64,000 nucleotides of DNA from Burkholderiaceae bacterium (GTDB taxonomy: Bacteria; Pseudomonadota; Gammaproteobacteria; Burkholderiales; Burkholderiaceae_C). The stretch lies in NCBI GenBank assembly GCA_026125795.1, contig JAHCKM010000001.1, positions 1,922,001 to 1,986,000 of the forward strand, written 5' to 3'. The position numbers were made by a program, and so were the translations under genes. This document shows, piece after piece, positions 29,137 to 63,940 of the stretch (positions are counted from its first letter, which is position 1; the number at the start of each line of letters is the position of its first letter). Under the pieces are notes generated by a model. The model had not been told where the DNA came from. It did no database searches and saw nothing but the letters and a program-made list of their open reading frames with translations.

Positions 29137-29284
29137 ATGAGACCCCCTCGCTCACTTTCTTGGCTGCGGTCGGCGCTTTGCGCCTTCACATCGCTGCGCG
29201 ATGTGAGCCTACGCCGCAACCTTCGGTTGTCGCTGCCCCTCAAGGGGCAACGTCATCGCCTGCGGGCGGCCGGGCGGCGCTGAC
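29137..29284 (+). repeat. GC-rich junction repeat upstream of motA (long form)
   Basis: It begins CCCCCTCGCTCACTTTCTTGG and ends CTGCCCCTCAAGGGGCAACG...GCGGGCGGCCGGGCGGC, the two ends of the junction repeat. Between them lie extra short hairpins, including a perfect TCACATCG/CGATGTGA stem at about 29187-29205. Its last bases touch the motA start region, which has no purine-rich ribosome site of its own. Confidence 0.7.
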
Positions 29285-29285
29285 C

Positions 29286-30149
29286 ATGTTCGTCGTCATC
29301 GGCTGGATCGTCGCGCTGGGTTGTGTGTTCGGGGTGTTCATCGCCCACGGCGGCAACATCAGCGTCGTGCTCAAGGCCTTGCCGTTCGAGATGCTGACCA
29401 TCATGGGCGCGGCGATCGGGGCGTTCATCGCCAACAACCAGATGAAGGTGCTCAAGGCCTCGGCCGCGGGCCTGGCGAGCTGCTTCAAGGGCAGCAAGTA
29501 CACGAAGGCGCGCTACATGGAGCTGATGGCGCTGCTGTACGACATCCTGCAGAAGGCCCGCAAGGAGGGCCTGATGTCGATCGAGAAGGACGTCGAGGAT
29601 CCGCACAACTCGCCGCTGTTCCAGAAGTACCCGACGGTGGGCAGCGACCACCACGTGACCGAGTTCATCACCGACTACCTGCGCATGATGGTGTCGGGCA
29701 ACCTCAACGCGCACGAGATCGAATCGCTGATGGACAGCGAGATCGAAACCCACCACCACGAGGCGCATGCGCCGGTGGGGGCGCTGCAGCGCCTGGCCGG
29801 CGGCCTGCCGGCCTTCGGCATCGTGGCCGCGGTGCTCGGCGTGGTGAACACCATGGGTTCGGTGGGGCAGCCGCCGGCGGTGCTGGGCGCCATGATCGGC
29901 TCGGCGCTGGTCGGCACCTTTCTCGGCATCCTGCTCTCCTACGGCATCTTCGAGCCGCTGGCCGGGCTGCTGGAGCAGAAGGTCGACGAGAGCGGCAAGG
30001 AGCTGCAATGCATCAAGACCACGCTGCTGGCCTCGATGCAGGGTTATGCGCCGCAGGTGGCGATCGAGTTTGGGCGCAAGGTGCTGTATTCGACCGAGCG
30101 GCCGAGCTTTGCCGAGTTGGAAGGGCACGTGAAGGGGAAGAAGGCCTGA
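29286..30149 (+). CDS. motA: Flagellar motor stator protein MotA
   Basis: MotA forms the proton-conducting stator pentamer and pushes on FliG. The 287-residue protein has four hydrophobic helices (VVIGWIVALGCVFGVFIAHG; IMGAAIGAFIANN; LPAFGIVAAVLGVVNTMGS; AMIGSALVGTFLGILLSYGI) and a charged cytoplasmic loop between helices 2 and 3. Start is the ATG at 29286; upstream is GGGCGGCGCTGACC, without a Shine-Dalgarno-like stretch. Its stop codon lies in the loop of a perfect hairpin. Confidence 0.96.
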   Translation: MFVVIGWIVALGCVFGVFIAHGGNISVVLKALPFEMLTIMGAAIGAFIANNQMKVLKASAAGLASCFKGSKYTKARYMELMALLYDILQKARKEGLMSIEKDVEDPHNSPLFQKYPTVGSDHHVTEFITDYLRMMVSGNLNAHEIESLMDSEIETHHHEAHAPVGALQRLAGGLPAFGIVAAVLGVVNTMGSVGQPPAVLGAMIGSALVGTFLGILLSYGIFEPLAGLLEQKVDESGKELQCIKTTLLASMQGYAPQVAIEFGRKVLYSTERPSFAELEGHVKGKKA

Positions 30150-30163
30150 CGGCCTTCTTCCCC
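30134..30163 (+). other. Perfect 13-bp hairpin with the motA stop codon in its loop
   Basis: GGGGAAGAAGGCC (30134-30146), loop TGAC holding the motA TGA, and GGCCTTCTTCCCC (30151-30163). The stem is perfect, stable and not followed by a T-run. It could attenuate transcription between motA and motB or protect the motA 3' end and so set stator-subunit ratio; that is inference. Confidence 0.7.
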
Positions 30164-30235
30164 TGCGGGATGAACGTGGGCACCCCCTGCCCCCCGCCGA
30201 GCGGGGGTTCCAGCTAGAAAGACGAAGGAATACCA

Positions 30236-31189
30236 ATGGCCGGCGACTCGAAGAAGCTGCAGCCGATCATCGTCAAGAAGATCAAGAAGGGCGGCCACGG
30301 GCATCATGGCGGCGCCTGGAAGATCGCCTATGCCGACTTCGTGACGGCGATGATGGCGTTCTTCCTGTTGATGTGGCTGCTCGGTTCGACCACCGAGGGC
30401 GACAAGAAGGGCATTGCGGACTATTTTCAATCGCCGCTCAAGGTGGCCATGTTCGGCGGCTCCGGCGCCGGCGATGCATCACACGTGCTCAAGGGCGGCG
30501 GCACCGATCTCACGCGCACCACCGGCCAGGTCAAGAACGGCGAGGTCGAGTCCGATCGCAAGACGATCAACCTGAAGGCGCTCAAGGACGAACAGATCCG
30601 CGCCGAGATCGCGCGGCTGAAGTCGCTGCAGGAGAAGATCGACGGCGAGCTGCTCAACAACCCGGGCTTGGGCGCGTTCCGCTCGCAGATCATGCTGGAG
30701 CTCACGCGCGACGGGCTGCGCATCCAGATCGTCGACGCGCACAACCGGCCGATGTTTGCCAGCGGCTCGTCGGTGGTGCAGCCGTACATGCAGGAGCTTC
30801 TGCGCACCATCGGCGGCGTGTTGGCCGAGGTGCCGAACCGCCTCACGCTCGAGGGCCACACCGATGCCACGCCGTTCTCCGGCGGCGAGCGCGGCTACAG
30901 CAACTGGGAGCTGTCGGCCGATCGCGCCAACGCGTCGCGCCGCGAGCTGCTGGCCGGCGGCCTGCCCGAGGACCGCGTGCTGCGCGTGCAGGGGCTGGCA
31001 TCGAGCCAGCTGATGGTGCGTGACAGACCCGACGATCCGATCAACCGCCGCATCAGCCTGGTGGTGATGACGCGCGAGGCCGAGGATGCGATCTTCCGGC
31101 CGCAGTTGGCACCGCAGGCCGGGCAGGAGCCGTCGATCAAGCCCGAGCGGCCGACGCTGGTCTCAAGTCAACCGGTGTTGGGCCGATAG
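30236..31189 (+). CDS. motB: Flagellar motor stator protein MotB
   Basis: MotB is the stator partner that anchors to peptidoglycan. The 317-residue protein has a basic N-terminus ([20 protein letters not shown]) and one membrane helix ([19 protein letters not shown]) carrying the proton-binding Asp (D34, equivalent to E. coli D32). The plug region and OmpA-like domain ([35 protein letters not shown]) follow. motA lies 86 bases upstream across a stop-codon hairpin and a partial GC-rich repeat. The last codons overlap the cheY promoter. Confidence 0.96.
31163..31189 (+). promoter_or_regulatory. Sigma-28 (FliA) promoter of cheYZ inside the end of motB
   Basis: TCAAGTCA, 11 bases, then GCCGATAG. 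The -10 element ends exactly on the motB TAG stop, so the last nine codons of motB double as the promoter. It leaves about 49 bases to the cheY ATG. Confidence 0.78.
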
Positions 31190-31238
31190 ACAAGTTGCAA
31201 CAGCGCCGGCGAATCCGGGCGCCCTGAAGGACCGTTCC

Positions 31239-31631
31239 ATGAGCAACCAAGCCGACCTCAAGTTCCTGATCGTCGACGACTTCTCGACGATGCGCCGCAT
31301 CGTGCGCGGCCTGCTCAAGGAGATGGGCTGCAACAACGCCGAGGAGGCCGAGGACGGCGCCGTGGCGCTGGCCGCGCTGAAGGCGCAGAAGTTCGACTTT
31401 GTGGTGTGCGACATCAACATGCCCAACATGAACGGCTTCGACTTTCTCAAGGCCGTGCGCGCCGACGAGGCGCTCAAGCACATCCCGGTGCTGATGGTCA
31501 CGGCCGAGGCGCGCAAGGAGGACATCGTGCTGGCCGCGCAGACCGGCGCCTCGGGCTACATCGTCAAGCCGTTCACGAAGGCGACCCTGGAAGAAAAGGT
31601 TCAGAAGATCATCCAGAAAATCGCGGCATGA
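31239..31631 (+). CDS. cheY: Chemotaxis response regulator CheY
   Basis: CheY-P binds FliM and changes rotation direction. The 130-residue single receiver domain shows the acidic pocket D13/D14 ([11 protein letters not shown]), phospho-acceptor D58 ([12 protein letters not shown]), T88 (VLMVTAEA) and K110 (YIVKPF). The start at 31239 follows GAAGG. Its stop overlaps cheZ (ATGA). The kinase cheA and the other che genes are not in this window. Confidence 0.96.
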
Positions 31632-32341
31632 ACATGGGCCCCCACGCTCGCACACGGCACTCGCTGCCCCCCGAGGGGGCTGAGCCCGCTTGGGGCGGCC
31701 CGGCGCGGTCTCGCATCGACGACATCGAAACGCTGGTCGCGCAAGCGCCGGTGACGGCGTCACCCGAGGTGTTCCAGCAGCTCGGCGCGATCACGCGCAT
31801 GCTGCACGACACGCTGCAGCAGCTCGGCGTGATGCCCAAGCTGCAGGTCGCCGCCGAGGGGCTGCCCGACGCGCGCAGCCGGCTCAACTACATCGCCAAC
31901 AAGACCGCGCAGGCGGCCGAGAAGGTGCTTGATTCGGTCGACCATGCCAAATCCGAACACCAGCGGATCGCCGCCGAGACGCGCCGCCTGGCCGCCTCGC
32001 TGACGGCCGACCCGGTACGTGCCGTGGCCTCCGGTGCGGTGATGAACTTCGTCGGCGACGTCGAGGCGCGCACCAAGCGCATCGACCAGCACCTCACCGA
32101 CATCATGCTGGCGCAGGACTTTCACGACCTCACCGGCCAGGTGGTGGCCAAGGTCGTCACGCTGGCCACCGATCTTGAAGACAGCCTGCTCAAGTTGTTG
32201 ATGCAGGTGGTACCGCCCGAGCAGCGTGCAAAAGTGGACACGTCGGCCCTGCAAGGCCCGGTGGTCGACGCCAAGGGCCGGGCCGACGTGGTGTCCAACC
32301 AGGGCGAGGTCGACGACCTGCTCGCGAGTCTGGGTTTCTGA
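31628..32341 (+). CDS. cheZ: CheY-P phosphatase CheZ with repeat-derived N-terminus
   Basis: CheZ dephosphorylates CheY-P. The 237-residue product has the four-helix core ([40 protein letters not shown]), the catalytic segment [16 protein letters not shown] (Asp and Gln of DLTGQ) and the CheY-binding tail DDLLASLGF. The first roughly 27 residues ([20 protein letters not shown] onward) are encoded by a copy of the junction repeat. Starts at 31628 (ATGA overlap) or 31634 are possible, as is a later GTG at 31752. Without the extension its length is close to E. coli CheZ (214). Confidence 0.93.
31632..31708 (+). repeat. GC-rich junction repeat inside the cheZ 5' end
   Basis: The layout matches other copies: CCCCCACGCTCGC, then CTCGCTGCCCCCCGAGGGGG as the palindromic core, then GCTTGGGGCGGCCCGGCGCGG. 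It is translated as the CheZ N-terminus unless cheZ starts further downstream. Confidence 0.72.
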
Positions 32342-32356
32342 CCGGCGCTCGGCTGT

Positions 32357-32384
32357 AAAAAGGGCCGGCGGAAGGCCGGCTTTT
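32357..32384 (+). terminator. Intrinsic terminator after cheZ
   Basis: AAAAAGG-GCCGGC, loop GGAAG, GCCGGC-TTTT: six GC pairs extended by G-T and A-T pairs, starting 16 bases after the cheZ stop. It separates motAB-cheYZ from flhB. Confidence 0.8.
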
Positions 32385-32449
32385 CGGGCTTAAGAACTCT
32401 GCGCCGTCGGCACGATGGCGGAATCGATTCGTCGTTCCGCCGGGATGAA

Positions 32450-32526
32450 ACCGCCCCCACGCTCACTTTGTTCGCTGCCCCCCGAGGGGTCGCGTCAGTG
32501 CCTTCGGGCGGCCGGGCGGCACTGAC
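32450..32526 (+). repeat. GC-rich junction repeat upstream of flhB (reference copy)
   Basis: This is the most regular copy: CCCCCACGCTCACTTTGTTC, GCTGCCCCCCGAGGGG, spacer, then CCTTCGGGCGGCCGGGCGGC and ACTGAC directly before the flhB start. The same 3' end precedes motA. Confidence 0.75.
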
Positions 32527-32528
32527 AT

Positions 32529-33683
32529 ATGGCCGACCTGCAAGACAAGAACTTACCGGCGTCACACCGGCGCATCGCCAAGGCGCGCGAAGACGGCCAG
32601 GTGGCGCGTTCGCGCGACCTGGCGCATCTGCTGCCACTGGCGGCGGGCGTGGGCCTGATGGTGGCGCTGGCGCCGTGGGCGATGCACGGTGCCCATCAGC
32701 TGCTCGGCGAGGCCTTGAGCTTCGATGCCGCGGCCGTGCGCTCGCCCGACGCGATGCTGCAGGCGCTGGCGCCGCAGGTCCGGCGGCTGTTGATCGTGGT
32801 GGTGCCGATGGGCGCGCTGATGGTCGCGTTGGCCATTGCTGCCGCGGTGGCCGCGGGCGGCTGGAACTGGAGCTTCAAGCCGCTGCAGCCGTCGTTGGGC
32901 AAGCTCAATCCGTTGTCGGGATTGGGGCGCATGTTCTCCAAGCAGCATCTCCTCGACACGCTGAAGGCGTCGCTGCTGTCGATCGTGCTGGGTGTGATCG
33001 GCGCGTTGTTCCTGAGCCATTCGATGGCGCGCTTCCACGACGCGCTGGCGCTGCCGTTGCCGCGGGCGTTGTCGCACACCGCGCAGGCGGTGGTGGCCGG
33101 CGTGCTGCTGCTGCTGTTGGCGCTGGGTGTGTTCGCCGCCGTGGACGTGCCGCTGCAGCGCCACCTGTGGCTCAAGCGGCTGATGATGAGCCGCCAGGAG
33201 GCCAAGCAGGAGATGAAGGAGCTCGAGGGCAACCTCGAGGTCAAGGCCAAGGTCAAGGCGCGCATGCGCGAGATGGCCAAGCGTCGCATGCTGGCCAACG
33301 TGCCGAGGGCCGACCTGGTGGTGATGAATCCCACGCACTACGCGGTGGCACTCAAGTACGACGACGCCACCATGGCCGCGCCGCGCGTGATCGCCAAGGG
33401 CGCCGACCTGCTGGCGATGCGCATCCGCGATCTGGCTCGCGACGCCAAGGTGCCGGTGTTGCGCGCACCGCCGCTGGCGCGGGCGCTCTACGCCCACTGC
33501 GAGATCGATCGCGAGGTGCCGGCGGCGCTCTTTGCCGCGGTGGCCCAGGTGCTGGCCTACGTCTACCAGTTGCGCGCGGCGCTCTCCGGCAAGGCGCCGA
33601 TGCCGCAGGCGGTGCCCGAGCCGGCGATCCCACCGGGATTCGATCCGCACGAGAAGCCCGCTGAGTCGGAGGCCTCCGCATGA
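32529..33683 (+). CDS. flhB: Flagellar export switch protein FlhB
   Basis: FlhB is the export-gate protein that changes substrate specificity after autocleavage. The 384-residue protein has four membrane helices between about residues 35 and 215. The cytoplasmic domain carries the self-cleaving NPTH (VVMNPTHYAVALKY, N267-H270). A Pro/Glu-rich tail is typical. The start is the ATG at 32529, only a few bases after the GC-rich repeat and without a clear ribosome site. Its end overlaps flhA by ATGA. Confidence 0.96.
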   Translation: MADLQDKNLPASHRRIAKAREDGQVARSRDLAHLLPLAAGVGLMVALAPWAMHGAHQLLGEALSFDAAAVRSPDAMLQALAPQVRRLLIVVVPMGALMVALAIAAAVAAGGWNWSFKPLQPSLGKLNPLSGLGRMFSKQHLLDTLKASLLSIVLGVIGALFLSHSMARFHDALALPLPRALSHTAQAVVAGVLLLLLALGVFAAVDVPLQRHLWLKRLMMSRQEAKQEMKELEGNLEVKAKVKARMREMAKRRMLANVPRADLVVMNPTHYAVALKYDDATMAAPRVIAKGADLLAMRIRDLARDAKVPVLRAPPLARALYAHCEIDREVPAALFAAVAQVLAYVYQLRAALSGKAPMPQAVPEPAIPPGFDPHEKPAESEASA

Positions 33684-35758
33684 ACGGGCTGCTCAAGCAA
33701 TGGTTCGGCGCCCGTGCCGACACCGTCAAGGGCATCATTGCACCGCTGTTCATCGTGCTGGTGCTGGCGATGATGGTGCTGCCGCTGCCGCCGCTGATGC
33801 TCGACGTGCTGTTCACGTTCAACATCGCGATCGCGCTCACGGTGATGATGGTGGCCGCGCGCATGGTGCGGCCGCTGGACTTCGCCGCGTTCCCGTCGGT
33901 GCTGCTGATCACCACGCTGCTGCGCCTGTCGCTCAACGTGGCCTCCACGCGCGTGGTGCTGATGGAAGGCCACACCGGCGCCGGTGCGGCCGGCCAGGTG
34001 ATCGAGTCGTTCGGCCACTTCCTGATCGGCGGCAACTTCGCCGTCGGCCTGATCGTGTTCGCGATCCTGGTGGTGATCAACTTCATCGTCGTCACCAAGG
34101 GCGCCGAGCGCATCGCCGAGGTGGGCGCGCGTTTCACGCTCGACGCGATGCCCGGCAAGCAGATGGCGATCGACGCCGACCTCAACGCCGGCCTGATCGA
34201 CGAGACCGAGGCCAAGCGCCGCCGCGCCGAGGTGGGCGAGGAAGCCGAGTTCTTCGGCTCGATGGACGGCGCGTCCAAGTTCGTGCGCGGCGACGCGGTG
34301 GCCGGCATCCTGATCCTGATCATCAACATCGTCGGCGGCTTCATCATCGGCGTGGCGCAGCACGGCCTCTCCGCCGGCCAGGCCGCCGAGAGCTACGTCC
34401 TGCTGGCGGTGGGCGATGCGCTGGTGGCGCAGATCCCGGCGCTGCTGATCTCGGTGGCCGCGGCGATGGTGGTGTCGCGCGTTGGCAAGCAGCACGACAT
34501 CGGAACGCAGATCGGCACGCAGGTGTTCGGCTCGCCGCGTTCGCTCGGCGTGGCCGGTGCGATCGTCGGCACGCTCGGCCTGGTGCCCGGCATGCCGAAC
34601 GGCGTGTTCATCGTGATCGCGTCGGCGCTCGGCTGGCTCGCCTGGTGGCTGCATCAGCGCGAGAAGGTGCGTGCCGCGCAGGCCAAGGCGGCGCCGGCGC
34701 CGATCGCCGCGCCCAACGGCGAAGCGAGCTGGGACGATCTGCAGCCGGTCGACACGCTCGGCCTGGAGGTGGGTTACCGGCTGATCGCGCTGGTGGACAA
34801 GGAGCGCCAGGGCGACCTGCTGGCGCGCATCAAGGGCGTGCGCAAGAAGTTCGCGCAGGACGTGGGCTTCCTGCCGCCGCCGGTGCATATCCGCGACAAC
34901 CTCGAGCTCAAGCCGAGCATGTACCGCATCACGCTGCGTGGCGCGGTGGTCGGCGAAGCCGAGGCCTTTCCCGGCATGTGGCTGGCCATCAACCCGGGCG
35001 GCGCGACGCTGCAGCTGCCGGGCACACGCGTCACCGACCCGGCGTTTGGACTGCCCGCGGTGTGGATCGAGGAGCGCCAGCGCGAGCAAGCCCAAATGGC
35101 GGGCTTTACGGTGGTTGATTGCGCCACCGTCGTGGCGACCCACCTTTCACACTTGATGCAAGTGCATGCGGGCCGTCTGCTCGGCCGCGTCGAAACCCAA
35201 TCGCTCGTCGAACACGTGACCAAGCTCGCGCCCAAGCTCATCGAAGACGTGGTGCCCAAGATGGTGGGCATCGCCACCGTGCAGAAGGTGCTGCAGCTGC
35301 TGTTGGAGGAGGGCGTGCACATCCGCGACATGCGCTCGATCACCGAGTGCCTGGCCGAGCATGCCGCGACGGTGACCGATCCCGGCGAGCTGGCGCGCCG
35401 TATCCGTGTGCACCTCGCGCCGGCGATCGTGCACCAGATCTACGGCCCGGTGCGCGAGCTCGAAGTGATTGCGCTGGAGCCCGACCTCGAACGGCTGGTG
35501 ACGCAGGCGCTGACCTCGCCGCACGGTGTGGCGCTGGATCCCGGCGTGGCCGAGACGCTGTCGCGCGAGGCCGCCAACAGCGCCAAGTACCAGGAAGACA
35601 TGGGCCATCCGGCGTGCCTGCTGGTGCCCGACCCGATCCGTGCCGCGATGGCGCGCCTGCTCAAGCGCTCGGCGCCGCGCATGCGCGTGCTGAGCCACAG
35701 CGAGATCCCTGAAACCCACTCCATCCGCATCGGTGCGGTCATCGGAGGAACAGCATGA
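33680..35758 (+). CDS. flhA: Flagellar export gate protein FlhA
   Basis: FlhA is the nonameric export gate. The 692-residue protein has eight membrane helices in the first half. The FHIPEP signature region shows as MVRPLDFAAFPSVLLITTLL, RLSLNVASTRVVLMEGHTGA and GAERIAEVGARFTLDAMPGK. The large cytoplasmic domain (YRLIALVDKERQGDLLARIK; GLPAVWIEERQREQAQMAGF) completes it. Both ends overlap neighbours by ATGA, which indicates tight coupling of flhB-flhA-flhF. Confidence 0.97.
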   Translation: MNGLLKQWFGARADTVKGIIAPLFIVLVLAMMVLPLPPLMLDVLFTFNIAIALTVMMVAARMVRPLDFAAFPSVLLITTLLRLSLNVASTRVVLMEGHTGAGAAGQVIESFGHFLIGGNFAVGLIVFAILVVINFIVVTKGAERIAEVGARFTLDAMPGKQMAIDADLNAGLIDETEAKRRRAEVGEEAEFFGSMDGASKFVRGDAVAGILILIINIVGGFIIGVAQHGLSAGQAAESYVLLAVGDALVAQIPALLISVAAAMVVSRVGKQHDIGTQIGTQVFGSPRSLGVAGAIVGTLGLVPGMPNGVFIVIASALGWLAWWLHQREKVRAAQAKAAPAPIAAPNGEASWDDLQPVDTLGLEVGYRLIALVDKERQGDLLARIKGVRKKFAQDVGFLPPPVHIRDNLELKPSMYRITLRGAVVGEAEAFPGMWLAINPGGATLQLPGTRVTDPAFGLPAVWIEERQREQAQMAGFTVVDCATVVATHLSHLMQVHAGRLLGRVETQSLVEHVTKLAPKLIEDVVPKMVGIATVQKVLQLLLEEGVHIRDMRSITECLAEHAATVTDPGELARRIRVHLAPAIVHQIYGPVRELEVIALEPDLERLVTQALTSPHGVALDPGVAETLSREAANSAKYQEDMGHPACLLVPDPIRAAMARLLKRSAPRMRVLSHSEIPETHSIRIGAVIGGTA

Positions 35759-37263: not shown

Positions 37264-37274
37264 GAGGTACGTCG

Positions 37275-38042: not shown

Positions 38043-38084
38043 CCGAATCTGTTGTTGAAACGAAGACTCGCGGAGAGCCTTTTC

Positions 38085-38798: not shown

Positions 38799-38842
38799 CG
38801 AGACGAGCACGAAGCAACAACCCACTTTTTGCGAGCAATGCC

Positions 38843-40195: not shown

Positions 40196-40229
40196 GCGCC
40201 GAAAGAATCGCTGCGCGATCGTTCGGCGC
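40196..40229. terminator. Bidirectional hairpin between convergent genes
   Basis: GCGCCGAA (40196-40203) pairs with TTCGGCGC (40222-40229), with an inner ATCGC/GCGAT stem. It fills exactly the space between the chemoreceptor stop and the kinase stop on the other strand. No T-run. Confidence 0.55.
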
Positions 40230-43373: not shown

Positions 43374-43449
43374 ATCATGGGTGCACCCCTGGCGCTTCGC
43401 GCCTCCCCGCCTAGCGGGGGCTGAGCCCCTTCGGGCGGCCGTGCGGGGC
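43374..43449 (+). repeat. GC-rich junction repeat between flgM and flgA
   Basis: CACCCCTGGCGCTTCGCGCC, CTCCCCGCCTAGCGGGGG and CCCCTTCGGGCGGCCGTGCGGGG, ending directly at the flgA stop codon. Just to the left is CCCCCTGCGAATTCGGGGG, a further short hairpin (about 43337-43355). Confidence 0.68.
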
Positions 43450-44187
43450 TCACAGCGCCACCTCCACCTGCCGGTTGGCCGTGGCGCGGCCGACCACGAC
43501 ACGGCCACCTTCGGTGCGCACCTTGACCGGCTGGCCTTCGATGCCGGGGCTCAGCGCCAGACCATCGGAGCTGATCGCAAACCCCGGCCCGGCGCCGACG
43601 ATGCGCACCGTGTCGCCGGCGGCAAACCACTGGCGCGCTTTCAGATCGCCTTGGCGCAGCACGTGGCCTGGCATGAGCGCACGTGCCAGGGGCCGGCCGA
43701 GCGCGGCCTGCGCCTGCAGGATGGGTGGGCTCCGCTCGGCGGCGATGTCGACCTCGTCGAGGTGCAGATGTTCTGCCTTGACGATCGTGCCGAATGCGAG
43801 CGGCTGGTTCACCGTCCAGGCTTGTGCGAACACTTTGACCGTCACCGGCAGAAAGACGCTCCAGCGCGCGCCCTCGACGCAGCGCAGGCCGACCTGCGCG
43901 CGGCCCCACAAGCGCGCGCCGGCGGGCAGATACGGCGTGATGCGCGTGCAGGGCGCAAGCTTCAGCCGCGGGTCGATCGATCCCACGTCGACTTCGACCC
44001 GCGTGCCCTCTGGCATGCCGGCGGTGGATTGTTGCGCCAGCTGCCGGATCTGCGCCTGCCAGGCCTCGACGCTCTTCGGTTGAGCGGCCGCCGCGCCGGC
44101 CGCACCCAGCAGCGCCAGAAGCGCCGCGCGCCTCAGCGAGACACGCAGGTGCGGCAGCGATCGAACTGACTTGTTCACGGGCTGCAT
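43450..44187 (-). CDS. flgA: P-ring assembly chaperone FlgA
   Basis: FlgA is a periplasmic chaperone for FlgI polymerisation into the P-ring. The 245-residue protein has a basic N-terminus and a hydrophobic signal segment (RRAALLALLGAAGAAAAQP). The FlgA C-terminal SAF-like domain follows (PLAFGTIVKAEHLHLDEVDI; ARALMPGHVLRQGDLKARQW; GDTVRIVGAGPGFAISSDG). It is divergent from flgB across 171 bases, where class II promoters for both operons would be expected; I see no clear core motif there. Confidence 0.93.
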   Translation of the reverse strand: MQPVNKSVRSLPHLRVSLRRAALLALLGAAGAAAAQPKSVEAWQAQIRQLAQQSTAGMPEGTRVEVDVGSIDPRLKLAPCTRITPYLPAGARLWGRAQVGLRCVEGARWSVFLPVTVKVFAQAWTVNQPLAFGTIVKAEHLHLDEVDIAAERSPPILQAQAALGRPLARALMPGHVLRQGDLKARQWFAAGDTVRIVGAGPGFAISSDGLALSPGIEGQPVKVRTEGGRVVVGRATANRQVEVAL

Positions 44188-44358: not shown

Positions 44359-44763
44359 ATGCGGCTGACCGACGCGCTCGACTTCCAGACCCAGGCCCTG
44401 GTGCTGCGCGCCGAGCGCCAGCGCCTGATTGCCAGCAACATCGCCAACGCCGACACGCCCGGCTACGTGGCGCGGGACATGGATTTCGCGCGCGCGCTGC
44501 GCGAGGCCACCGGCCAGGCGGCGGCGGTGGCGCCCACCGCCACGAAAGCAGGCCACCTGCAGTTGGCCGGCGGTGCACGCGCCGAGCCCAACCTGCTGTA
44601 CACGCGCCCGGCGCAGAACAACCTCGACGGCAACAGCGTCGACATGGACCGCGAGCGCGCGGCGTTCGCCGACAACACGGTGAAGTACGAGGCCACGCTG
44701 CGTTTCATCAACGGCAGCATGCGCACGATGCTCGACGCGATGAAGTCGCACCACCAGGCATGA
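44359..44763 (+). CDS. flgB: Flagellar proximal rod protein FlgB
   Basis: FlgB is a proximal rod subunit. The 134-residue product has the rod-protein N-terminal motif (ERQRLIASNIANADTPGYVA) and the C-terminal helix (DNTVKYEATLRFINGSMRTM). AAAGGA lies upstream of the ATG at 44359. It opens the flgBCDEF block; a GC-rich repeat separates it from flgC. Confidence 0.96.
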   Translation: MRLTDALDFQTQALVLRAERQRLIASNIANADTPGYVARDMDFARALREATGQAAAVAPTATKAGHLQLAGGARAEPNLLYTRPAQNNLDGNSVDMDRERAAFADNTVKYEATLRFINGSMRTMLDAMKSHHQA

Positions 44764-44836
44764 GGCCCCGGCGTTCACCTCGTTCGCTGCTCCGCGAGGG
44801 GGCCCGGCCGGCCCGGCGCGGCCCGGCCCCGGCTGA
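44764..44836 (+). repeat. GC-rich junction repeat between flgB and flgC
   Basis: It starts right after the flgB stop: GGCGTTCACCTCGTTCGCTG, CTCCGCGAGGGGG, then a G/C-only stretch of CCCGGCC units and CCGGCTGAAGG. The flgC ribosome site (CGGAGG) lies outside it. Confidence 0.65.
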
Positions 44837-44866
44837 AGGCGCAGCAAACCAACACGGAGGCACACG

Positions 44867-45271
44867 ATGAGCCTGTTCCAGATCTTCAACGTCGCCGGCA
44901 GTGCCACCAGCGCGCAGACGCAGCGGCTGAACACGGTGGCCTCCAACCTGGCCAACGCCGACACGGTGGCCGGCCCCGACGGCCAGAGCTACAAGGCGCG
45001 CCAGGTGGTGTTCCAGACCCAGCTGATGGGCGAGGTGGGCGCCGCGGGCGTGCGCGTGAGCACGATCGCCGAGGACAACACGCCCGGCCGCCGCGTGCAC
45101 GACCCCAAGCACCCGAGCGCCGACGAGCAGGGCTACGTGACCTACAGCAACGTCAATCCGGTGGAGGAGATGGTCAACATGATCTCGGCCTCGCGCTCGT
45201 ACCAGAACAACGTGGAAGTGATGAACACGGCCAAGAACCTGCTGCTGAAGACGCTGCAGCTGGGTCAGTGA
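44867..45271 (+). CDS. flgC: Flagellar proximal rod protein FlgC
   Basis: FlgC is a proximal rod subunit. The 134-residue protein has the family start (FQIFNVAGSATSAQTQRLNT; VASNLANADTVAG) and the YVTYSNVNPVEEMVNMISAS / RSYQNNVEVMNTAKNLLLKT C-terminus. CGGAGG precedes the ATG. flgD follows after 17 bases. Confidence 0.96.
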   Translation: MSLFQIFNVAGSATSAQTQRLNTVASNLANADTVAGPDGQSYKARQVVFQTQLMGEVGAAGVRVSTIAEDNTPGRRVHDPKHPSADEQGYVTYSNVNPVEEMVNMISASRSYQNNVEVMNTAKNLLLKTLQLGQ

Positions 45272-48073: not shown

Positions 48074-48146
48074 CATGATGCCCGCACGCTCACTGCGTTC
48101 GCTGCCCTCCGAGGGGGCGCGCAGCCTCCTCGAGGCGGCTCGTCGG
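48074..48146 (+). repeat. GC-rich junction repeat upstream of flgG
   Basis: ATGATGCCCGCACGCTCACTG, CGTTCGCTGCCCTCCGAGGGGG, then a spacer and CTCGAGGCGGCTCGTC. It closely matches the flhB and cheZ copies in its first half. The flgG ribosome site GGAGG follows immediately. Confidence 0.7.
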
Positions 48147-48154
48147 AGGCTGCC

Positions 48155-48937
48155 ATGATGCGTTCGCTCTGGATCAGCAAGACCGGGATGGAGGCGCAGC
48201 AGACGCAGCTCGACACCATCGCGCACAACCTCGCCAACGTGGGCACCAACGGCTTCAAGCGCGGCCATGCAGTGTTCGAGGACCTGATCTACCAGAACCT
48301 GCGCCAGGCCGGCGCCAACAGCTCGGAGCAGACGCAGTTGCCCACCGGCTTGCAGGTGGGCTTGGGCGTGCGGCCGGTGTCGCTGTCGCGCAACTTCACG
48401 CAGGGCAACCTGCAGCAGACCGGCAACACGCTCGACCTCGCGGTCAAGGGCAGCGGCTTCTTCCAGATCCAGATGCCCGACGGCTCCGTGGCCTACACCC
48501 GCGACGGCGCGTTCCAGGTGGATGCGCAGGGCCAGCTCGTCACCAACAACGGCTTCGTCGTGCAGCCCGGCATCACCATCCCGGCCAACGCGCAGAGCGT
48601 GACGATCGCCGCCGACGGGACCGTCGGCGCGTTGTTGCCGGGCCAATCGGCGCCCACGTCGGTGGGCCAGCTGCAGCTGGCGTCGTTTGCCAACCCCGCG
48701 GGCCTCGAGCCGCGCGGGCAGAACCTGTTCACGGAGACCGCCGCCTCCGGCACGCCCAACGCCGCCGCACCCGGCAGCAACGGGCTCGGCACGCTGGCGC
48801 AGGGTTATGTCGAGACCAGCAACGTCAACGTGGTCGAGGAACTGGTGGCGATGATCCAGACGCAGCGCGCCTACGAGATCAACTCCAAGGCGATCCAGAC
48901 CTCGGATCAGATGCTGCAGCGGCTCGGGAACCTGTGA
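48155..48937 (+). CDS. flgG: Flagellar distal rod protein FlgG
   Basis: FlgG forms the distal rod. The 260-residue protein matches the family along its length: [60 protein letters not shown], and [20 protein letters not shown]. Start ATG at 48155, eight bases after GGAGG. Its stop overlaps the flgH start. Confidence 0.97.
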
Positions 48938-53623: not shown

Positions 53624-53646
53624 CTCGAACCGAAATTGAGGCCTCG

Positions 53647-54843: not shown

Positions 54844-54859
54844 TTCACAACAGACGCGC

Positions 54860-56050: not shown

Positions 56051-56090
56051 GCGGCAGCATTTGATCCATATCAAACGAGAGCATCGCGCC

Positions 56091-56558
56091 ATGACCTTGA
56101 GCGCCAACGGCCAGCTGAGCGACCCCCACACCATGCTCGATGCCGCGGCGCTGGCGCGGCTTTCCGAGCTCGATCCCACGGGCGACGGCACGCTGGTGCA
56201 GCGCGTGCTGGCCACCTACGCCACCTCGCTGGAGCGTTCGCGCAGCGAGCTGTCGCGGGCGCGCCAGCCGATGCAGCCGGAGGTGTTGCGCCACCTGGCG
56301 CACACGCTGAAGTCATCGTCCGCCAGCGTGGGCGCACTGGCGCTGTCGGCGCTGTGCGCGCAGGTGGAACACCGCGTGCGGGTGCTCAACGAACGAAGGG
56401 CCGCTCCCGAGTTCGTTGAACCCCCGCGGGGGGCCGGCCGGGCTCTGACCGGCCCCGGGGCCGCAGACGACCCGGGCGACATCGATTCGCTGCTCGACGC
56501 GATGCTGGCTGAAATGCGGCGTGTTTCGGACGCCGTGCAGGCTATGCTCCAAGTCTGA
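56091..56558 (+). CDS. Histidine phosphotransfer (HPt) protein with in-frame repeat insert
   Basis: The 155-residue single-domain HPt protein has its phospho-accepting H71 in HLAHTLKSSSASVGALAL. It would shuttle phosphate between a hybrid kinase and a receiver, possibly the REC domain of the next gene. Between the third helix (ALCAQVEHRVRVLNERR) and the last helix (DIDSLLDAMLAEMRRVSDAV) lies an insert of about 25 residues rich in Pro, Gly and Ala. It coincides with palindromic GC-rich DNA. I infer an in-frame repeat insertion in a loop. Confidence 0.83.
   Translation: MTLSANGQLSDPHTMLDAAALARLSELDPTGDGTLVQRVLATYATSLERSRSELSRARQPMQPEVLRHLAHTLKSSSASVGALALSALCAQVEHRVRVLNERRAAPEFVEPPRGAGRALTGPGAADDPGDIDSLLDAMLAEMRRVSDAVQAMLQV
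56386..56455 (+). repeat. GC-rich palindromic element inside the HPt gene
   Basis: TCAACGAAC (56386-56394) pairs with GTTCGTTGA (56411-56419), then CCCCCGCGGGGGG, then GGGCCGG (56431-56437) pairs with CCGGCCC (56449-56455). Composition and palindromic layout resemble the junction repeats, though sequence identity to them is limited. It is translated in frame. Confidence 0.6.
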
Positions 56559-56604
56559 GCGTCCCCCCGGCTGTCCGCCTGCACCGACGGCGAGCCTCGC
56601 GAAC

Positions 56605-58848: not shown

Positions 58849-58849
58849 G

Positions 58850-60502
58850 ATGAGCACCGGCATCACCCCGGCGCAGATCGCCAAGGCCGCGTTGCGCCGG
58901 CTGGCGATGCAGCAGCTCGAGCCGACGCCGGAGCACTTTGCCAAGGCGTATGCGCAGGAGGCCGGGAGCGGCCTGACGCCAGCGCGCGAGACGGCGCCGC
59001 CATCGGAGTCGGGCCGCGCCTGGGCCGCGTTGATCGAGCGCCTGTCCAAGGGGCTGGAGCGCGGCGGCAAACACTGGACCGGCGCGCGCAAAAAGCAGAG
59101 CCTGCAGCGTGTGCTCGACGGCAGCCGCGCCGATGCCGGCAAGCTGCAGCAGCGTCTCGGCCAGTTGATGGCCGCCTGGGACGACGACAGCGCGGCCAAC
59201 GAAGTGGAGCCCAGCGGCCTCGCGCCGCTTGATGAGGCAGCCGAAGTCGCTGCCGCAGCGTCGGCCCCGGCGATCACGCCGATTTCTTTGGAGACCGCGC
59301 CGCAGGCTCCGGCTGCATGGGAGCCGTTGCTGCACGAGCTGGGCAGCACGCTGCACGTGGCGCTGCCGCCCGACCGCTCGGGTGCCACCGCGCTGGCCGA
59401 TGCGCTGTGGGCAGCGGCTGGACGACTGGCGCGCGAGGGTGCGCATGCCGAGGTGGTGGCCGAGGTGGAGCGCCTGTGCGAACGGGCGCGCGCCCACCTG
59501 TCGCACCGCCATCAGTTGCTCGACGAGCTGACGCTGCTGTGCCGCTCGCTGACCGAGGGTCTGGGGGAGCTGGCCGAAGACCAGAGTTGGGCTCGCGGCC
59601 AATGCGATGCACTGCGCGAACGGTTGGGTGAGGGCCTGAGCGTGCGTGGTATCCATGCGGCCGCCGAGATGCTGGCCGCCACGCGCGCCAAGCAGCACGA
59701 GCTGCGCGCCGACCGCGAGGCGGCCCGCAACGCGCTCAAGGCGATGATCCAACGCATGCTGGCCGAGATCGGCGAGCTCGGCCAGCACACCGGGCGCTTC
59801 ACCGACAACGTGCAGCGCTACGCGCACACGATCGAACAGGCCGACTCGCTGCAGAGCCTGGCCGGCGTGGTGCAGGAGATGGTGGCCGAGACGCGTGCGG
59901 TGCACACGGTGGTCGATGGCGCGCGCGAGCGGCTGAGCGAGGAGCATGCACGCGCCAGCGAACTGGAGCGACGCGTGCTCGAGCTCGAAAGCGAGCTGCG
60001 CCGCCTGTCCGACGAGGTGTCGACCGACGCGCTGACGCAGGTGGCCAACCGGCGCGGTCTGCTGCAGGCCTTCGAAGCCGAACGCTCGCGCTCGCAGCGC
60101 GAGGGCAGCGCCCTGGCGGTGGGCCTGATCGACATCGACAACTTCAAGAAGCTCAACGATTCGCTCGGTCACGCCGCCGGCGACGAGGCGCTGAAAGCCC
60201 TGGCTGTGCGCACCAAGCAGAGCTTGCGTCCGATCGACCACGTGGCGCGCTTCGGCGGCGAGGAGTTCGTCGTGCTGCTGCCCGGCGCGGGCGTCGAGGA
60301 AGGCCAGCAGCTGCTCACGCGTCTGCAGCGCCAGCTGACCGCCAGCCTGTTCATGCACGATGGGCGCGAAGTGTTCGTCACCTTCTCGGCGGGTGTCACC
60401 GCGTTTCGCGACGGCGAGGCGCTCGACACGGCGCTCGAACGAGCCGACCGCGCGCTGTACGAGGCCAAGCGCAGCGGCAAGAACCGCACCTGCGTTTCTT
60501 GA
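58850..60502 (+). CDS. Diguanylate cyclase with long helical N-terminus
   Basis: The 550-residue protein has a helical N-terminal region of about 370 residues without a domain I can name (ITPAQIAKAALRRLAMQQLE; PTPEHFAKAYAQE). A coiled-coil segment (RLSEEHARASELERRVLELE) and an active-type GGDEF domain follow. FGGEEF (about 469-473) is preceded by RPID, a proper RxxD inhibitory site five residues upstream. It should make c-di-GMP with product inhibition. It starts one base after the preceding gene's stop. Input to YcgR and motility is a reasonable inference. Confidence 0.88.
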   Translation: MSTGITPAQIAKAALRRLAMQQLEPTPEHFAKAYAQEAGSGLTPARETAPPSESGRAWAALIERLSKGLERGGKHWTGARKKQSLQRVLDGSRADAGKLQQRLGQLMAAWDDDSAANEVEPSGLAPLDEAAEVAAAASAPAITPISLETAPQAPAAWEPLLHELGSTLHVALPPDRSGATALADALWAAAGRLAREGAHAEVVAEVERLCERARAHLSHRHQLLDELTLLCRSLTEGLGELAEDQSWARGQCDALRERLGEGLSVRGIHAAAEMLAATRAKQHELRADREAARNALKAMIQRMLAEIGELGQHTGRFTDNVQRYAHTIEQADSLQSLAGVVQEMVAETRAVHTVVDGARERLSEEHARASELERRVLELESELRRLSDEVSTDALTQVANRRGLLQAFEAERSRSQREGSALAVGLIDIDNFKKLNDSLGHAAGDEALKALAVRTKQSLRPIDHVARFGGEEFVVLLPGAGVEEGQQLLTRLQRQLTASLFMHDGREVFVTFSAGVTAFRDGEALDTALERADRALYEAKRSGKNRTCVS

Positions 60503-60587
60503 GCACCCCCGAAGCGTTTTAGCGGGCCGCCTCCCGCCTCCGCGGTGGCATAGTCGCGCACCCAGCGACCATCCACCGCCCACGCCC

Positions 60588-62333
60588 ATGCGACTGCCCA
60601 ACCTGCTCGCCACTCCGCGCGGCCGCCTGGCGGCGTTCTTCTTTCTCTACATCACCGAAGGCATCCCGCTGGGCTTTGCCGCCACCGCAGTGGCCACGCA
60701 GCTGCGCCGGCAGGACGTGGGGCCGGCCGAGATCGGCGCTTTCGTCGGCTCGTTCTATCTGCCGTGGGCCTTCAAGTGGGCCTTCGGTCCCTTCATCGAC
60801 GTGTTCGCCTCCGATCGATTGGGGCGGCGGCGCGGCTGGATCATCGTCACGCAGGTGCTGATGGCGCTCACGCTGATGTCCACTGTGCTGCTGAAGCTGC
60901 CCGAGCAGCTGGTGCTGTTCACGATCATCCTGCTGGTGCACAACACGTTCGGCGCGATGCAGGACGTGGCGATCGACGCGCTGGCGGTGAACTCGCTGGC
61001 CGAGCACGAACGCGGTCTGGCCAACGGGCTGATGTTCGCCGGCGCGGCGATCGGGCAGGCGATCGGTGGCGCCGGCGTGCTGTTCCTCGCCAGCTACACC
61101 GGATTTCAGCCGACGTTTTTCTTCGTCGCCGGCTGCATTCTCGCGGTGACCCTGTTCGTCGCGTTGCCGATGCGCGAGGTGCCCGGCGCGATGCGTGTCA
61201 TCGCGCAGGGCGTGTCGCGCTGGGCCCATGCGGCGGGCCAGATGCGTGCCTTCGCGGTGGAGTCGTTCCGTTCGTTCCTCGGCACGCGCGGCGCCTACCT
61301 GGCCCTGGCGTTCGCGCTGTTGCCGTCGGGCGCAATGTGCCTCGGGCTGGCGCTGCAATCGAACCTTGCCGTCGAGCTGGGCCTGAACGACAACCAGGTC
61401 GCGGCGCTGAACCTGTGGTCCGGCATCATCCAGGCCGGATTCATGGTGGTGGGTGGCTTCCTGTCCGACCGCTGGGGCCGGCGCCGCATGCTGGCGCTGT
61501 ACATCGTGCTGATGAGCGTGCCGGTGCTGTACCTGATGTCGGTGCTGCAGCAGCACGGCTGGGTGATGCCGCAAAGCGCGGCCAATCGCTCGGTGGCGCC
61601 TGCCGTGCTGGTGACCGCGCTGTGGGTGGCGACGCTCACCTACGGCGTGGCACTCGGCCTGATGTATGGCACGCGTTCGGCGATCTTCATGGACGTGACC
61701 AACCCGGCGGTCGCAGCCACGCAGTTCACCGCCTACATGGCGCTGCTGAACCTGAACATCGCCTACTCGGCGACCTGGCAGGGTATTGCGATCGAGGCGA
61801 TCGGTTATCCGAACACGATGCTGATTGATGCCATCTTTGGCCTGGCGTGCCTGCTGCTGCTGCCGTGGATCCGGGCCGTGCGCGGCAACCTGCCCGACGG
61901 CGGCGCGCCGCTGCGCGCGCGCATCAGCGCGGTGATCCTCGGCGCGGCCTGCATGATGTGGGTGCCGTACCGCCTGGGAGCGGGTGTGCTCGGTGCGGCG
62001 GCACCGATCTTCGAAACCGCTTTCACCGTGGTGTTCGTCGCATCGGCGCTGTTCCTGCTCGCCGGGGCCGCCGTTCTGAAGCGCGCATCGCCAGCTCTGC
62101 TGCGTGCCGGTGCCTGGATGGCGCTGCTGCTGATGTTGATGTATGCGCGGCGCTGGAGCGGCCAGCTGGCGGCACCATGGGCCGAGTGGGCCGGCTACCT
62201 GATCCTGGTGGTGCCCGTGGTGGCCGGCGTGCTGTTGCTCGCGCTGGCGGCCCAGGCCTGGCGCGAGTTGGCGGGGGCGGCAGCGCCGGCAGGTGTCGGT
62301 GCCGTGCCTCAGACCAGCGCTTCGATCAGATAG
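60588..62333 (+). CDS. MFS transporter, AmpG-like
   Basis: The 581-residue membrane protein has at least 12 hydrophobic helices. Its start is typical of the AmpG/PAT subgroup of the major facilitator superfamily (AAFFFLYITEGIPLGFAATA; SFYLPWAFKWAFGPFIDVFA; DRLGRRRGWIIVTQ), with QDVAIDALAV and GGFLSDRWGRRRML. AmpG imports muropeptides; whether this one does is not shown by sequence. The C-terminus has extra helices. It seems unrelated to flagella, and its 3' end overlaps the convergent gene by 25 bases. Confidence 0.8.
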   Translation: MRLPNLLATPRGRLAAFFFLYITEGIPLGFAATAVATQLRRQDVGPAEIGAFVGSFYLPWAFKWAFGPFIDVFASDRLGRRRGWIIVTQVLMALTLMSTVLLKLPEQLVLFTIILLVHNTFGAMQDVAIDALAVNSLAEHERGLANGLMFAGAAIGQAIGGAGVLFLASYTGFQPTFFFVAGCILAVTLFVALPMREVPGAMRVIAQGVSRWAHAAGQMRAFAVESFRSFLGTRGAYLALAFALLPSGAMCLGLALQSNLAVELGLNDNQVAALNLWSGIIQAGFMVVGGFLSDRWGRRRMLALYIVLMSVPVLYLMSVLQQHGWVMPQSAANRSVAPAVLVTALWVATLTYGVALGLMYGTRSAIFMDVTNPAVAATQFTAYMALLNLNIAYSATWQGIAIEAIGYPNTMLIDAIFGLACLLLLPWIRAVRGNLPDGGAPLRARISAVILGAACMMWVPYRLGAGVLGAAAPIFETAFTVVFVASALFLLAGAAVLKRASPALLRAGAWMALLLMLMYARRWSGQLAAPWAEWAGYLILVVPVVAGVLLLALAAQAWRELAGAAAPAGVGAVPQTSASIR

Positions 62334-63940
62334 GGACCCTGGCTGGCGAAACCGCGCTCGGTCTCGCGGATGAACGCCTCGGGCGTCTGCACGCTGGCGC
62401 CTGGCATGCCGTGGCCTCTGGCGATGGCGACCCAGTCGAGCGCGGGCGCGTCGAGCGTCAGCATGCGCGTCGCCTTGGGGCCGCTAACGGCGTGAACCCC
62501 CTGGCTCGCTGCTGCGTGCGCGTCCCCCCGAGGGGAATCGGCCGCTTCGGGCGGCCGGGCGCGGCCGGCGCCCACGCTCTTCAGCTCGCCTTGCAGGATG
62601 CGGTAGGCACGGTTCGCGAACACAACCACCACCACCGGCAGCGACTCGCGCGCGATGCTCCACAGGGCTTGCAAGGTGTACATCGCGCTGCCGTCGCCTT
62701 CCAGCGCCAGCACCGGCCGACCCGGCGCGCCAATGGCCGCACCGAGCGCGGCCGGCAATCCGAAGCCGATCGCGCCGCCCATCACCGTCAGCCAATCGTG
62801 CGGCGCGGCAGCGGCGAAACGGTTGCCGAACGCGCGGCCCGATGTGACGGCCTCGTCGACCACGATCGTCTGCTCCGGCAGCAGTGCAACCAGCGCGTGG
62901 CCGATCAGATCGGCATCGAGCGTAGAAGCGCGGCGCAACGCATCGAGGTCGACCGCTGTCGGCGTATCGGGCGGCACGGCGCGGGCACCGAGTTCGTCGC
63001 ACAGCGCCTGCAGCGCGGCGGGCACGTCGTCGCGTGCGTCGCACAAGGTCTGCAGCGCGCAGCCGGCCGCCTTGAGCTGGCTCGGTTTACCCGGATAGGC
63101 AAAGAAGCCGATAGGTTCGGTGGCGCCGGCCATCACGAGACAATCGGCACCCTTGAGCTTGTCGAGTGCGGCGTCGGTTGCATACGGGAGACGCTCCAGG
63201 CGCGTGCGACCGCGGCCGCCTGCCGTGCGCGGGCTGTAAAACTCCGCCATGACTCGACAGCCGGTCTTACGCGCGATCGCCGCGGCGAGCGGCGCGCCGC
63301 GTTCGCCGACGCCGGCGGCGCCCACCAGCAGCAGCGCACGTTCTCCGAGCCGGGCGAGGGTCCGCGCGCACGCGCGCACCGCCTCGTCATCAGCAGGCTT
63401 CAGCGGTACCCGATCGGGGACGCGCGCGATGGCACCGCCAGGACCCCATGCGGTGTCAGCCGGCAGCGCGAGCGTCGCGATGCGGCCGAGCGCGCCGTCG
63501 CGCGTGGCGGCGATGGCCTGTGCGCCGGCAGCCGCCACGTCGAGCGAACGTTTGCAGGTGTACACCCAATGCGATACCGGCCTGGCGATGCCTTCGAGGT
63601 CGCTCTTGAGCGGTGACTCGAAACGCACGTGGTCCGTGGCGTGATCGCCGACGATGTTGACGATGCCCGAGCAGGCCTTCTTTGCGTTGTGCAGGTTGGC
63701 CAGGCCGTTGCCCAGGCCGGGCCCCAGGTGCAGCAGCGTGGCCGCCGGCTGACCCGTCATGCGGTAGTAGCCGTCGGCGGCCCCGGTCACCACGCCTTCG
63801 AACAGGCCGAGCACGCAGCGCGGCCCGTCGATGCGGTCGAGCGCCGCCACGAAGTGCATTTCGGACGTGCCGGGGTTGGCGAAGCACACGTCGACGCCGT
63901 TGGCGGCCAGCGTGGCCACAAGGGATTCGGCACCGTTCAT
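62309..63940 (-). CDS. ThDP-dependent acetolactate synthase-like enzyme with repeat insert
   Basis: The 543-residue protein belongs to the ThDP family of acetolactate synthase and benzoylformate decarboxylase. It has VDVCFANPGTSEMHFVAALD, the cofactor-activating Glu in LGLFEGVVTGAADGYYRMTG, and the ThDP/Mg motif ALEGDGSAMYTLQALWSIAR...FANRAY. At about residues 459-485, where relatives read directly from VGAG into a PG/P-KA-ML segment, there is an insert of about 27 residues (from RARPPEAADSPRGD) encoded by a junction-type repeat. The substrate is unknown. AAGGA precedes the ATG read at 63940-63938. Confidence 0.85.
   Translation of the reverse strand: MNGAESLVATLAANGVDVCFANPGTSEMHFVAALDRIDGPRCVLGLFEGVVTGAADGYYRMTGQPAATLLHLGPGLGNGLANLHNAKKACSGIVNIVGDHATDHVRFESPLKSDLEGIARPVSHWVYTCKRSLDVAAAGAQAIAATRDGALGRIATLALPADTAWGPGGAIARVPDRVPLKPADDEAVRACARTLARLGERALLLVGAAGVGERGAPLAAAIARKTGCRVMAEFYSPRTAGGRGRTRLERLPYATDAALDKLKGADCLVMAGATEPIGFFAYPGKPSQLKAAGCALQTLCDARDDVPAALQALCDELGARAVPPDTPTAVDLDALRRASTLDADLIGHALVALLPEQTIVVDEAVTSGRAFGNRFAAAAPHDWLTVMGGAIGFGLPAALGAAIGAPGRPVLALEGDGSAMYTLQALWSIARESLPVVVVVFANRAYRILQGELKSVGAGRARPPEAADSPRGDAHAAASQGVHAVSGPKATRMLTLDAPALDWVAIARGHGMPGASVQTPEAFIRETERGFASQGPYLIEALV
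62490..62572 (+). repeat. GC-rich junction repeat inside the ThDP-enzyme gene
   Basis: GTGAACCCCCTGGCTCGCTG, CGTCCCCCCGAGGGG, CGCTTCGGGCGGCCGGGC: the same ordered blocks as the flhB and flgM/flgA copies, including a shared 13-mer CTTCGGGCGGCCG. It lies opposite to the direction of the gene it interrupts, yet keeps the frame. Confidence 0.75.

What the first reader, a model, noticed from the sequence alone, without database searches (positions are those of the whole stretch)
29137..62572. Dispersed GC-rich palindromic repeat family at flagellar gene junctions
At least seven copies share ordered blocks: C4-6-ACGCTCACT, (G)TTCGCTG, a CCCCCCGAGGGGG core, and CTTCGGGCGGCCGGGCGGC. They lie before motA (29137), inside cheZ (31632), before flhB (32450), in flgM-flgA (43374), in flgB-flgC (44764), before flgG (48074) and in the ThDP gene (62490). 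Partial or related copies are in fliF-fliG (5399), motA-motB (30181) and the HPt gene (56386). The clear copies are all in plus orientation. This looks like a REP/MITE-like family that marks operon junctions; I recall GC-rich elements of this kind in Burkholderiales but know of no description of a function.
Basis: partly seen in the sequence, partly recalled or inferred. Interest (0 to 1): 0.7.

Follow-up and report, generated by a model that had tools for sequence, protein, structure and literature searches.

The report
Repeat forming mini-genes at gene starts
A short hairpin-rich DNA repeat, scattered through the genomes of many Betaproteobacteria, usually sits right at the start of a gene and reads as a tiny gene of its own that ends where the real gene begins, which may be how cells tolerate it even inside essential operons.

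Summary
The repeat is real and larger than the finding: 74 core hits in the genome, 0 for the reversed core; at least 149 copies by covariance model. REP/RAYT is not supported: no Y1 transposase in the genome or five sampled congeners, and no copy at six Y1 loci of relatives. Of 87 copies with a co-directed downstream gene, 74 have an ATG within 14 nt upstream (6-15 in shifted windows) and 61 form a short ORF through the element stopping within -12..+6 nt of the gene's start, mostly TGACATG or ATGA. The upstream gene's stop abuts that ORF's start in 40 of 59. Twelve of 19 comparable junctions in a congener are cleanly empty. The design recurs in other genera. Best reading: a dispersed palindromic mini-cistron, kept where it preserves termination-reinitiation. 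It is probably the BRE repeat of Hot et al. 2011 (identity not proven); the mini-cistron architecture looks new. How it spreads is unknown, and no translation was measured.

The parts
29137..29283 (+). extended copy before motA: short ORF of 48 codons plus stop (ATG 29137, TGA 29281-29283); motA ATG at 29286
   Evidence: R1 57 bits at 29205-29289; ORF coordinates; G005 motA start lacks it; MotA domains in the protein read from 29286
31628..31718 (+). copy at the 5' end of cheZ, open in frame with CheZ (N-terminal extension; CheZ domain starts at residue 47)
   Evidence: R1 72 bits at 31632-31718; Pfam CheZ 47-237
32445..32525 (+). copy before flhB: short ORF ATG 32445 to TGA 32523-32525; flhB ATG at 32529
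   Evidence: R1 97 bits; empty junction in G005
43377..43457 (+). weak copy whose 3' end overlaps the stop codon of flgA (minus strand)
   Evidence: R1 29 bits, E 4.8e-4; flgA end
44760..44870 (+). copy between flgB and flgC: short ORF ATG 44760 to TGA 44868-44870, overlapping flgC ATG at 44867 (ATGA)
   Evidence: R1 42 bits at 44759-44841; empty in G005
48075..48158 (+). copy before flgG: short ORF ATG 48075 to TGA 48156-48158, overlapping flgG ATGATG at 48155
   Evidence: R1 85.7 bits; G005 flgG start lacks it
   Evidence: R1 32 bits
62490..62574 (+). copy inside a minus-strand TPP enzyme gene, read through in frame as about 28 extra residues in the C-terminal domain
   Evidence: R1 47 bits; Pfam TPP_enzyme_C spans 166 residues for 138 profile positions

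Best explanation
The repeat is a dispersed palindromic element (R1 matches mostly 77-114 nt; extended forms longer) that behaves as a mini-cistron. Usual order: start codon, short linker, CCCCCACGCTCACTTCGTTCGCTG, a CCCCCCGAGGGGGG hairpin, a second hairpin with variable but complementary arms, stop codon, next gene's start codon. Inferred working: ribosomes finishing the upstream gene, or loading at the old start site, translate the short ORF, melt the two hairpins, stop at the stop codon next to the gene's ATG and reinitiate there (translational coupling). Copies that keep this chain are tolerated even in dense or essential operons, e.g. between the genes of ribosomal proteins S13 and S11; others survive as in-frame inserts within proteins or near gene ends. 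Shown: copy number, architecture, covarying arms, empty sites. Inferred: that the ORF is translated and coupled, that selection rather than target choice causes the pattern, and that the element spread by transposition.
For: ATG within 14 nt upstream in 74 of 87 copies with a co-directed downstream gene, 6-15 in ten shifted windows; 5 of 21 in copies facing an opposite gene, 1-6 in shifted windows (Fisher p 1.3e-7). ORF stop within -12..+6 nt of the gene start in 61 of 87 (28 at -4, 13 at +1). Of the 74 with a linker ATG, 54 couple; with linker offsets swapped between copies the mean is 31.7, maximum 44, 0 of 1000 reach 54. Six more of 14 re-read failures couple when the true start of extended copies or another gene start is used (post hoc, no control). 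Upstream gene's stop within -4..+10 of the linker start in 40 of 59. Extended copies with an extra 70+ nt keep the frame in 4 of 5 of the motA type, and in L015 and L023. Arms covary: 10 of 16 consensus pairs have changes on both sides. G005: 12 clean empty junctions of 19 flank pairs. Elsewhere: ATG in 61 of 82 and 43 of those 61 coupled; other genera of the family, ATG in 16 of 19 (2.5 in shifted windows), 14 of 16 coupled; 6 of 6 plasmid or chromid copies inspected, of 14 records. S13-S11 and FliL-FliM junctions confirmed by Pfam.
Against: No ribosome or reporter data. 26 of 87 copies fail the strict test and 20 still fail after re-reading. The hairpins are not unusually stable for their composition in the six folded (z -1.4 to +0.2). 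Shine-Dalgarno-like 4-mers are equally frequent before both starts (19 of 61 each), so dependence on coupling is not shown by loss of an SD. The peptide shows no sign of selection: three frames are used and the main variable sites are the same in each group. No fixed target-site duplication. Gene starts come from codon statistics, not annotation, except in one record. One of the 19 congener junctions (L169) holds a related repeat about 100 nt upstream, so old insertions may exist.
Confidence: 0.62

Rival explanations
1. A domesticated regulatory leader: the short ORF plus hairpins is kept because it sets or senses translation of the downstream gene, like attenuator or uORF leaders.
For: Recurrent position, covarying hairpins, wide distribution.
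Against: Orthologous junctions differ: the 12 clean G005 junctions lack it; it precedes unrelated genes; the peptide shows no selection; copy number runs from 0 to at least 149 within one family.
Confidence: 0.15
2. An element whose insertion machinery actively targets start codons or stop-start overlaps; selection plays little part.
For: Exact placement at ATG; slight excess of matching bases after the two ATGs (0.81 vs 0.49 nt; 7 of 2000 shuffles reach it); one 9-nt match, ATG included, at L189.
Against: Copies facing opposite genes lack the ATG (5 of 21), and 8 of those 21 lie well inside genes, read through in frame, so ATG is not an obligatory target; no fixed-length duplication; before the ATGs there is no excess.
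Confidence: 0.15
3. REP element mobilised by a RAYT transposase.
For: Palindromic, dispersed, GC-rich; Y1_Tnp genes, many RAYT-like in length, exist in 15 of 17 other-genus relatives searched.
Against: No Y1_Tnp in own genome or in five congeners (three of these are only 68-85% complete), although copies are plentiful there; no element at the six Y1 loci examined (best 10.1 bits).
Confidence: 0.03
4. Plain transcription terminators or mRNA-stability hairpins at operon junctions.
For: GC-rich hairpins between genes.
Against: In most listed copies the second hairpin is followed by a start codon, not a T run, before a co-directed gene (seen in the sequences; no terminator scan was run).
Confidence: 0.05

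Closest known systems
BRE, Beta-proteobacterial repeat element (Hot et al. 2011, PMC3110155; section 14 read)
   Same: 75-91 bp, GC-rich, tandem copies with few bases between, reported in Bordetella, Azoarcus and Comamonadaceae, usually intergenic, some overlapping ORF ends, some inside coding sequence. Our family: tandem spacing 74-94 nt, GC 0.62-0.84, hits in records titled Achromobacter, Azoarcus, Aromatoleum, Rhodoferax, Variovorax, Rubrivivax.
   Different: The section proposes no function and mentions no start-codon placement or short ORF; it counts at most 29 copies in a genome. Sequence identity could not be checked: its alignment is in a figure and its list in a supplement, neither held.
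Rickettsia palindromic elements (RPE) and other bacterial MITEs with ORFs (review PMC2229807, passages seen)
   Same: Small palindromic elements with open frames found fused in frame inside proteins; here the TPP enzyme and cheZ copies.
   Different: Here the main site is the start codon, with a separate short ORF ending at the gene's start rather than a fusion.
REP/RAYT and GTAG/CGTC-tagged REPs (PMC3733652, passages seen)
   Same: Dispersed palindromes; CGTC REPs are also said to lack a dedicated transposase; the paper lists Bordetellae among REP-like families without terminal tags.
   Different: Two hairpins rather than one 20-40 bp palindrome; terminal stem arms vary; no RAYT association. 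A conserved unpaired tag was not tested.
Translational coupling by termination-reinitiation at ATGA/TGATG overlaps (PMC6728339, PMC10666635; listing and abstract starts only); Salmonella intergenic small ORF promoting a Mg2+ transporter (PMC8092293) and bicistronic-design leaders (PMC5995908), listing and abstract starts only
   Same: Stop and start codons overlapping or very near; a short first cistron before the gene.
   Different: Those are gene pairs, one natural small ORF, or engineered leaders; here the first cistron is a repeat present in many copies.

Membership tests
REP/RAYT | cognate Y1 (RAYT) transposase in the genome | tested here: not met
   PF01797: 0 in own genome, 0 of 5 congeners, three of them 68-85% complete
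REP/RAYT | copies flanking the RAYT gene | tested here: not met
   6 Y1 loci of relatives examined: best R1 score 10.1 bits, E 0.67
MITE | terminal inverted repeats over the whole element | tested here: not met
   consensus structure has two internal hairpins, no outer pairing
MITE | target-site duplication of fixed length | tested here: inconclusive
   weak excess after ATG, none before, no fixed length
MITE | presence/absence at orthologous sites | tested here: met
   12 clean empty junctions of 19 flank pairs in G005
BRE (Hot et al. 2011) | same nucleotide sequence | not testable with these tools
   BRE sequences lie in a figure and supplement not held; lexA-junction attempts in two unnamed genera did not reach a recognisable Bordetella
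BRE (Hot et al. 2011) | length, GC, tandem arrays, Betaproteobacterial range | tested here: met
   against section 14
translationally coupled short ORF | ORF stop overlapping or adjacent to next start codon | tested here: met
   61 of 87; linker-offset shuffle 0 of 1000
translationally coupled short ORF | short ORF translated; gene depends on it | not testable with these tools
   no ribosome or reporter data
known RNA family (Rfam 15) | match at gathering score | tested here: not met
   0 matches in the window

The most novel reading that the evidence does not exclude
A class of selfish mini-cistrons: a mobile palindrome that settles between the stop and start codons of operon genes, supplies its own coupled short ORF with start, hairpins and stop, and so spreads through essential operons across Betaproteobacteria without breaking them, each insertion adding a new translated peptide and a new control point.
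Probability: 0.4. Interest if true: 0.78.

Novelty: new variant of a known kind. Interest (0 to 1): 0.6.

Why it matters
If right, at least some sixty genes of this one genome (61 of the 87 copies examined), and many more in other Betaproteobacteria, are translated through a repeat-borne short ORF. That would bear on start-codon calls, searches for small proteins, and ideas of how dense operons tolerate insertions. It also gives a repeat published without a function a concrete, cheaply testable one, with natural filled and empty junction pairs as controls.

Tried and rejected
REP/RAYT: rejected, see membership test. Rfam: no match in the window. Phage carriage: 0 of 50,697 phage records; plasmids 14 of 72,556 records, 13 of the 14 over 500 kb (one 90-nt query). 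Target-site duplication: weak. Peptide selection: third-position variation is the same in copies read in other frames, so no support. SD loss: no difference. Unusual RNA stability: none in six folded. BRE identity: tried through lexA junctions in two unnamed genera chosen by repeat hits; best model match 16.8 bits in 30 loci of the first; the second had 2.8-3.9 Mb genomes that I judged not to be Bordetella and did not pursue. Literature searches that could have shown a prior description of start-codon or short-ORF placement; none seen in their listings, in an open-access library that lacks most subscription papers. Rows dropped before counting 113 copies: partial matches, matches under 42 bits, some overlapping tandem units, and duplicates of one place, out of 101 and 29 matches; copies of the at least 149 that I did not fetch are not in the context counts.
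Full report
Observation. The core CGCTGCCCCCCGAGGGG occurs 13 times in the window with up to 3 mismatches against 1.28 expected, and 74 times in the 6.57 Mb genome with up to 1 mismatch against 0 for the reversed pattern. A covariance model from 29 copies (R1) gives 149 matches at E<=0.1 in the genome; the search scored only 150 candidates, so this is a lower bound. The fliF-fliG and motA-motB sites are not found at E<=1. Of the 149 genome matches 5 lie in the window, against 1.45 expected (P 0.016).

Anatomy. Short linker, CCCCCACGCTCACTTCGTTCGCTG, hairpin CCCC....GGGG, then a second hairpin whose loop (CTTCGGGCGGCCGGGC and variants) is conserved while its arms vary with compensation: 10 of 16 consensus pairs have changes on both sides, e.g. 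C-G 14, A-U 8, G-C 7 at one pair. Tandem arrays of two or three units exist.

Context. For 113 copies with flanks, codon statistics place the downstream gene on the same strand in 87, opposite in 21, unclear in 5 (sign test of 87 against 21, 1e-10). Among the 87, an ATG lies within 14 nt before the element in 74; ten shifted windows give 6-15. Among the 21 opposite copies it is 5, shifted windows 1-6. Reading from a linker start (ATG 54, GTG or TTG 7), the frame is open through the element and stops within -12..+6 nt of the gene's start in 61 of 87: 28 at -4 (TGACATG type), 13 at +1 (ATGA), 5 at -2. The other 26 are 20 uncoupled, 5 without a linker start and 1 without a gene start. Swapping linker offsets among the 74 copies with a linker ATG gives 31.7 coupled on average and at most 44, against 54 observed. 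Of 14 failures re-read, 6 couple when the start of extended elements or another gene start is used (post hoc). The upstream gene's stop lies within -4..+10 nt of the short ORF's start in 40 of 59, most often TGA-N-ATG. So the element is typically bracketed by stop-start junctions on both sides. Three frames occur, MxxPPRSLRSLPPEGA most often; the peptide shows no sign of selection. Extended variants with an extra block of 70 nt or more keep the frame in 4 of 5 copies of the motA type (L168 does not) and in L015 and L023.

Window copies. Short ORFs: motA 29137-29283, flhB 32445-32525, flgC 44760-44870, flgG 48075-48158. The cheZ copy is an in-frame N-terminal extension (CheZ domain from residue 47). 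The 62490 copy is antisense in a TPP enzyme gene and adds about 28 residues within the C-terminal domain. The 43377 copy abuts the flgA stop codon. Among the 21 opposite copies, 10 are read through by the opposite gene, 8 of them well beyond the element; in the others that gene's stop lies inside the element or within 78 nt of it.

Empty sites. In congener G005 (one search lists a contig of the same length as its C1, titled an Ideonella sp. MAG), 19 own copies have both flanks matched in the 1.2 Mb fetched; 12 junctions are short, clean and lack the element, including flhB, flgB-flgC and FliL-FliM (L167). Of the other seven, L137 (S13-S11) is visibly empty but with a broken flank match, L049 has a different hairpin, L169 has a related repeat about 100 nt upstream, and L031, L142, L054 and the cheZ copy do not give a comparable junction. 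Seen from the gene side, the motA, flgG and L060 starts also lack it. At L158 (two transporter permeases) the empty junction is TGATG; the filled one reads TGAAATG, element, TGA, 8 nt, ATG. At L137 the copy sits between the S13 and S11 genes (Pfam), its stop 6 nt before the S11 ATG.

Distribution. R1 at E<=0.001: 22 of 24 genomes of the same family including own, 0 of 16 from other families. Core with up to 1 mismatch, order-wide: 42 of 399 genomes; the reversed control hits once in each of 2 genomes; two other genomes of the family have as many core hits as this one. In 111 copies from 98 of its 112 stretches, 61 of 82 with a co-directed downstream gene have the ATG (57 over six shifted windows, 9.5 each) and 43 of those 61 are coupled (codon table of the own genome, no shuffle). 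In 30 copies from other genera of the family, 16 of 19 have the ATG (2.5 per shifted window) and 14 of those 16 are coupled. Six plasmid or chromid copies inspected, from Burkholderia, Paraburkholderia and Variovorax, all show a short ORF ending at a next ATG; in the one annotated stretch that ATG is the annotated CDS start.

Mechanism. Shown: position, frame, both stop-start contacts, covarying hairpins, presence/absence at orthologous junctions. Inferred: translation of the short ORF, opening of the hairpins by the ribosome, reinitiation at the gene. The established basis is coupling at ATGA/TGATG overlaps (PMC6728339, abstract start only). I favour survivorship over target choice because opposite-facing copies mostly lack the ATG. 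How copies arise is unknown: no RAYT found, no fixed target duplication.

Known versus new. The closest published repeat is BRE (PMC3110155, section 14), which matches in size, GC, tandem habit and host range but was given no function; identity was not testable here. In-frame palindromic elements are known from Rickettsia (PMC2229807, passages). A repeat-borne, translationally coupled short ORF at start codons was not seen in the listings of searches. Hence: new variant of a known kind.

Noticed in passing
window 30178-30215: A different GC hairpin (GGGCACCCCCTGCCCCCCGCC...GGGGGTTCCAG) lies between motA and motB; one near-identical copy occurs in congener G005 (L109:14319) at another junction, so it may be a second dispersed family.
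   Followed up: partly
L015, L023, L052:772, window about 5399: Some copies carry a nested hairpin of the type CAGTCC...GGACTG; the elements look modular, and the insert keeps the short ORF open in L015 and L023.
   Followed up: partly
L212-L215: RAYT-like genes of several relatives sit beside what looks like the glutamate synthase gene (named from recall); GGGTCAGA or TCTGACCC motifs unrelated to this element appear near them.
   Followed up: no
L133:1501-1742: Three tandem copies with a 78-nt (26-codon) unit keep one open frame ending at the next gene's GTG start.
   Followed up: partly
window 29137-62574: Five of the 149 genome matches lie in this 64 kb against 1.45 expected (P 0.016); the flagellar region may be locally rich in them.
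   Followed up: no
L059, L060, L011 and window 48140-48158: One arm type puts a GGAGG inside the second hairpin just before the gene's ATG, so the ribosome-binding site might be hidden until the short ORF is translated (sequences).
   Followed up: no
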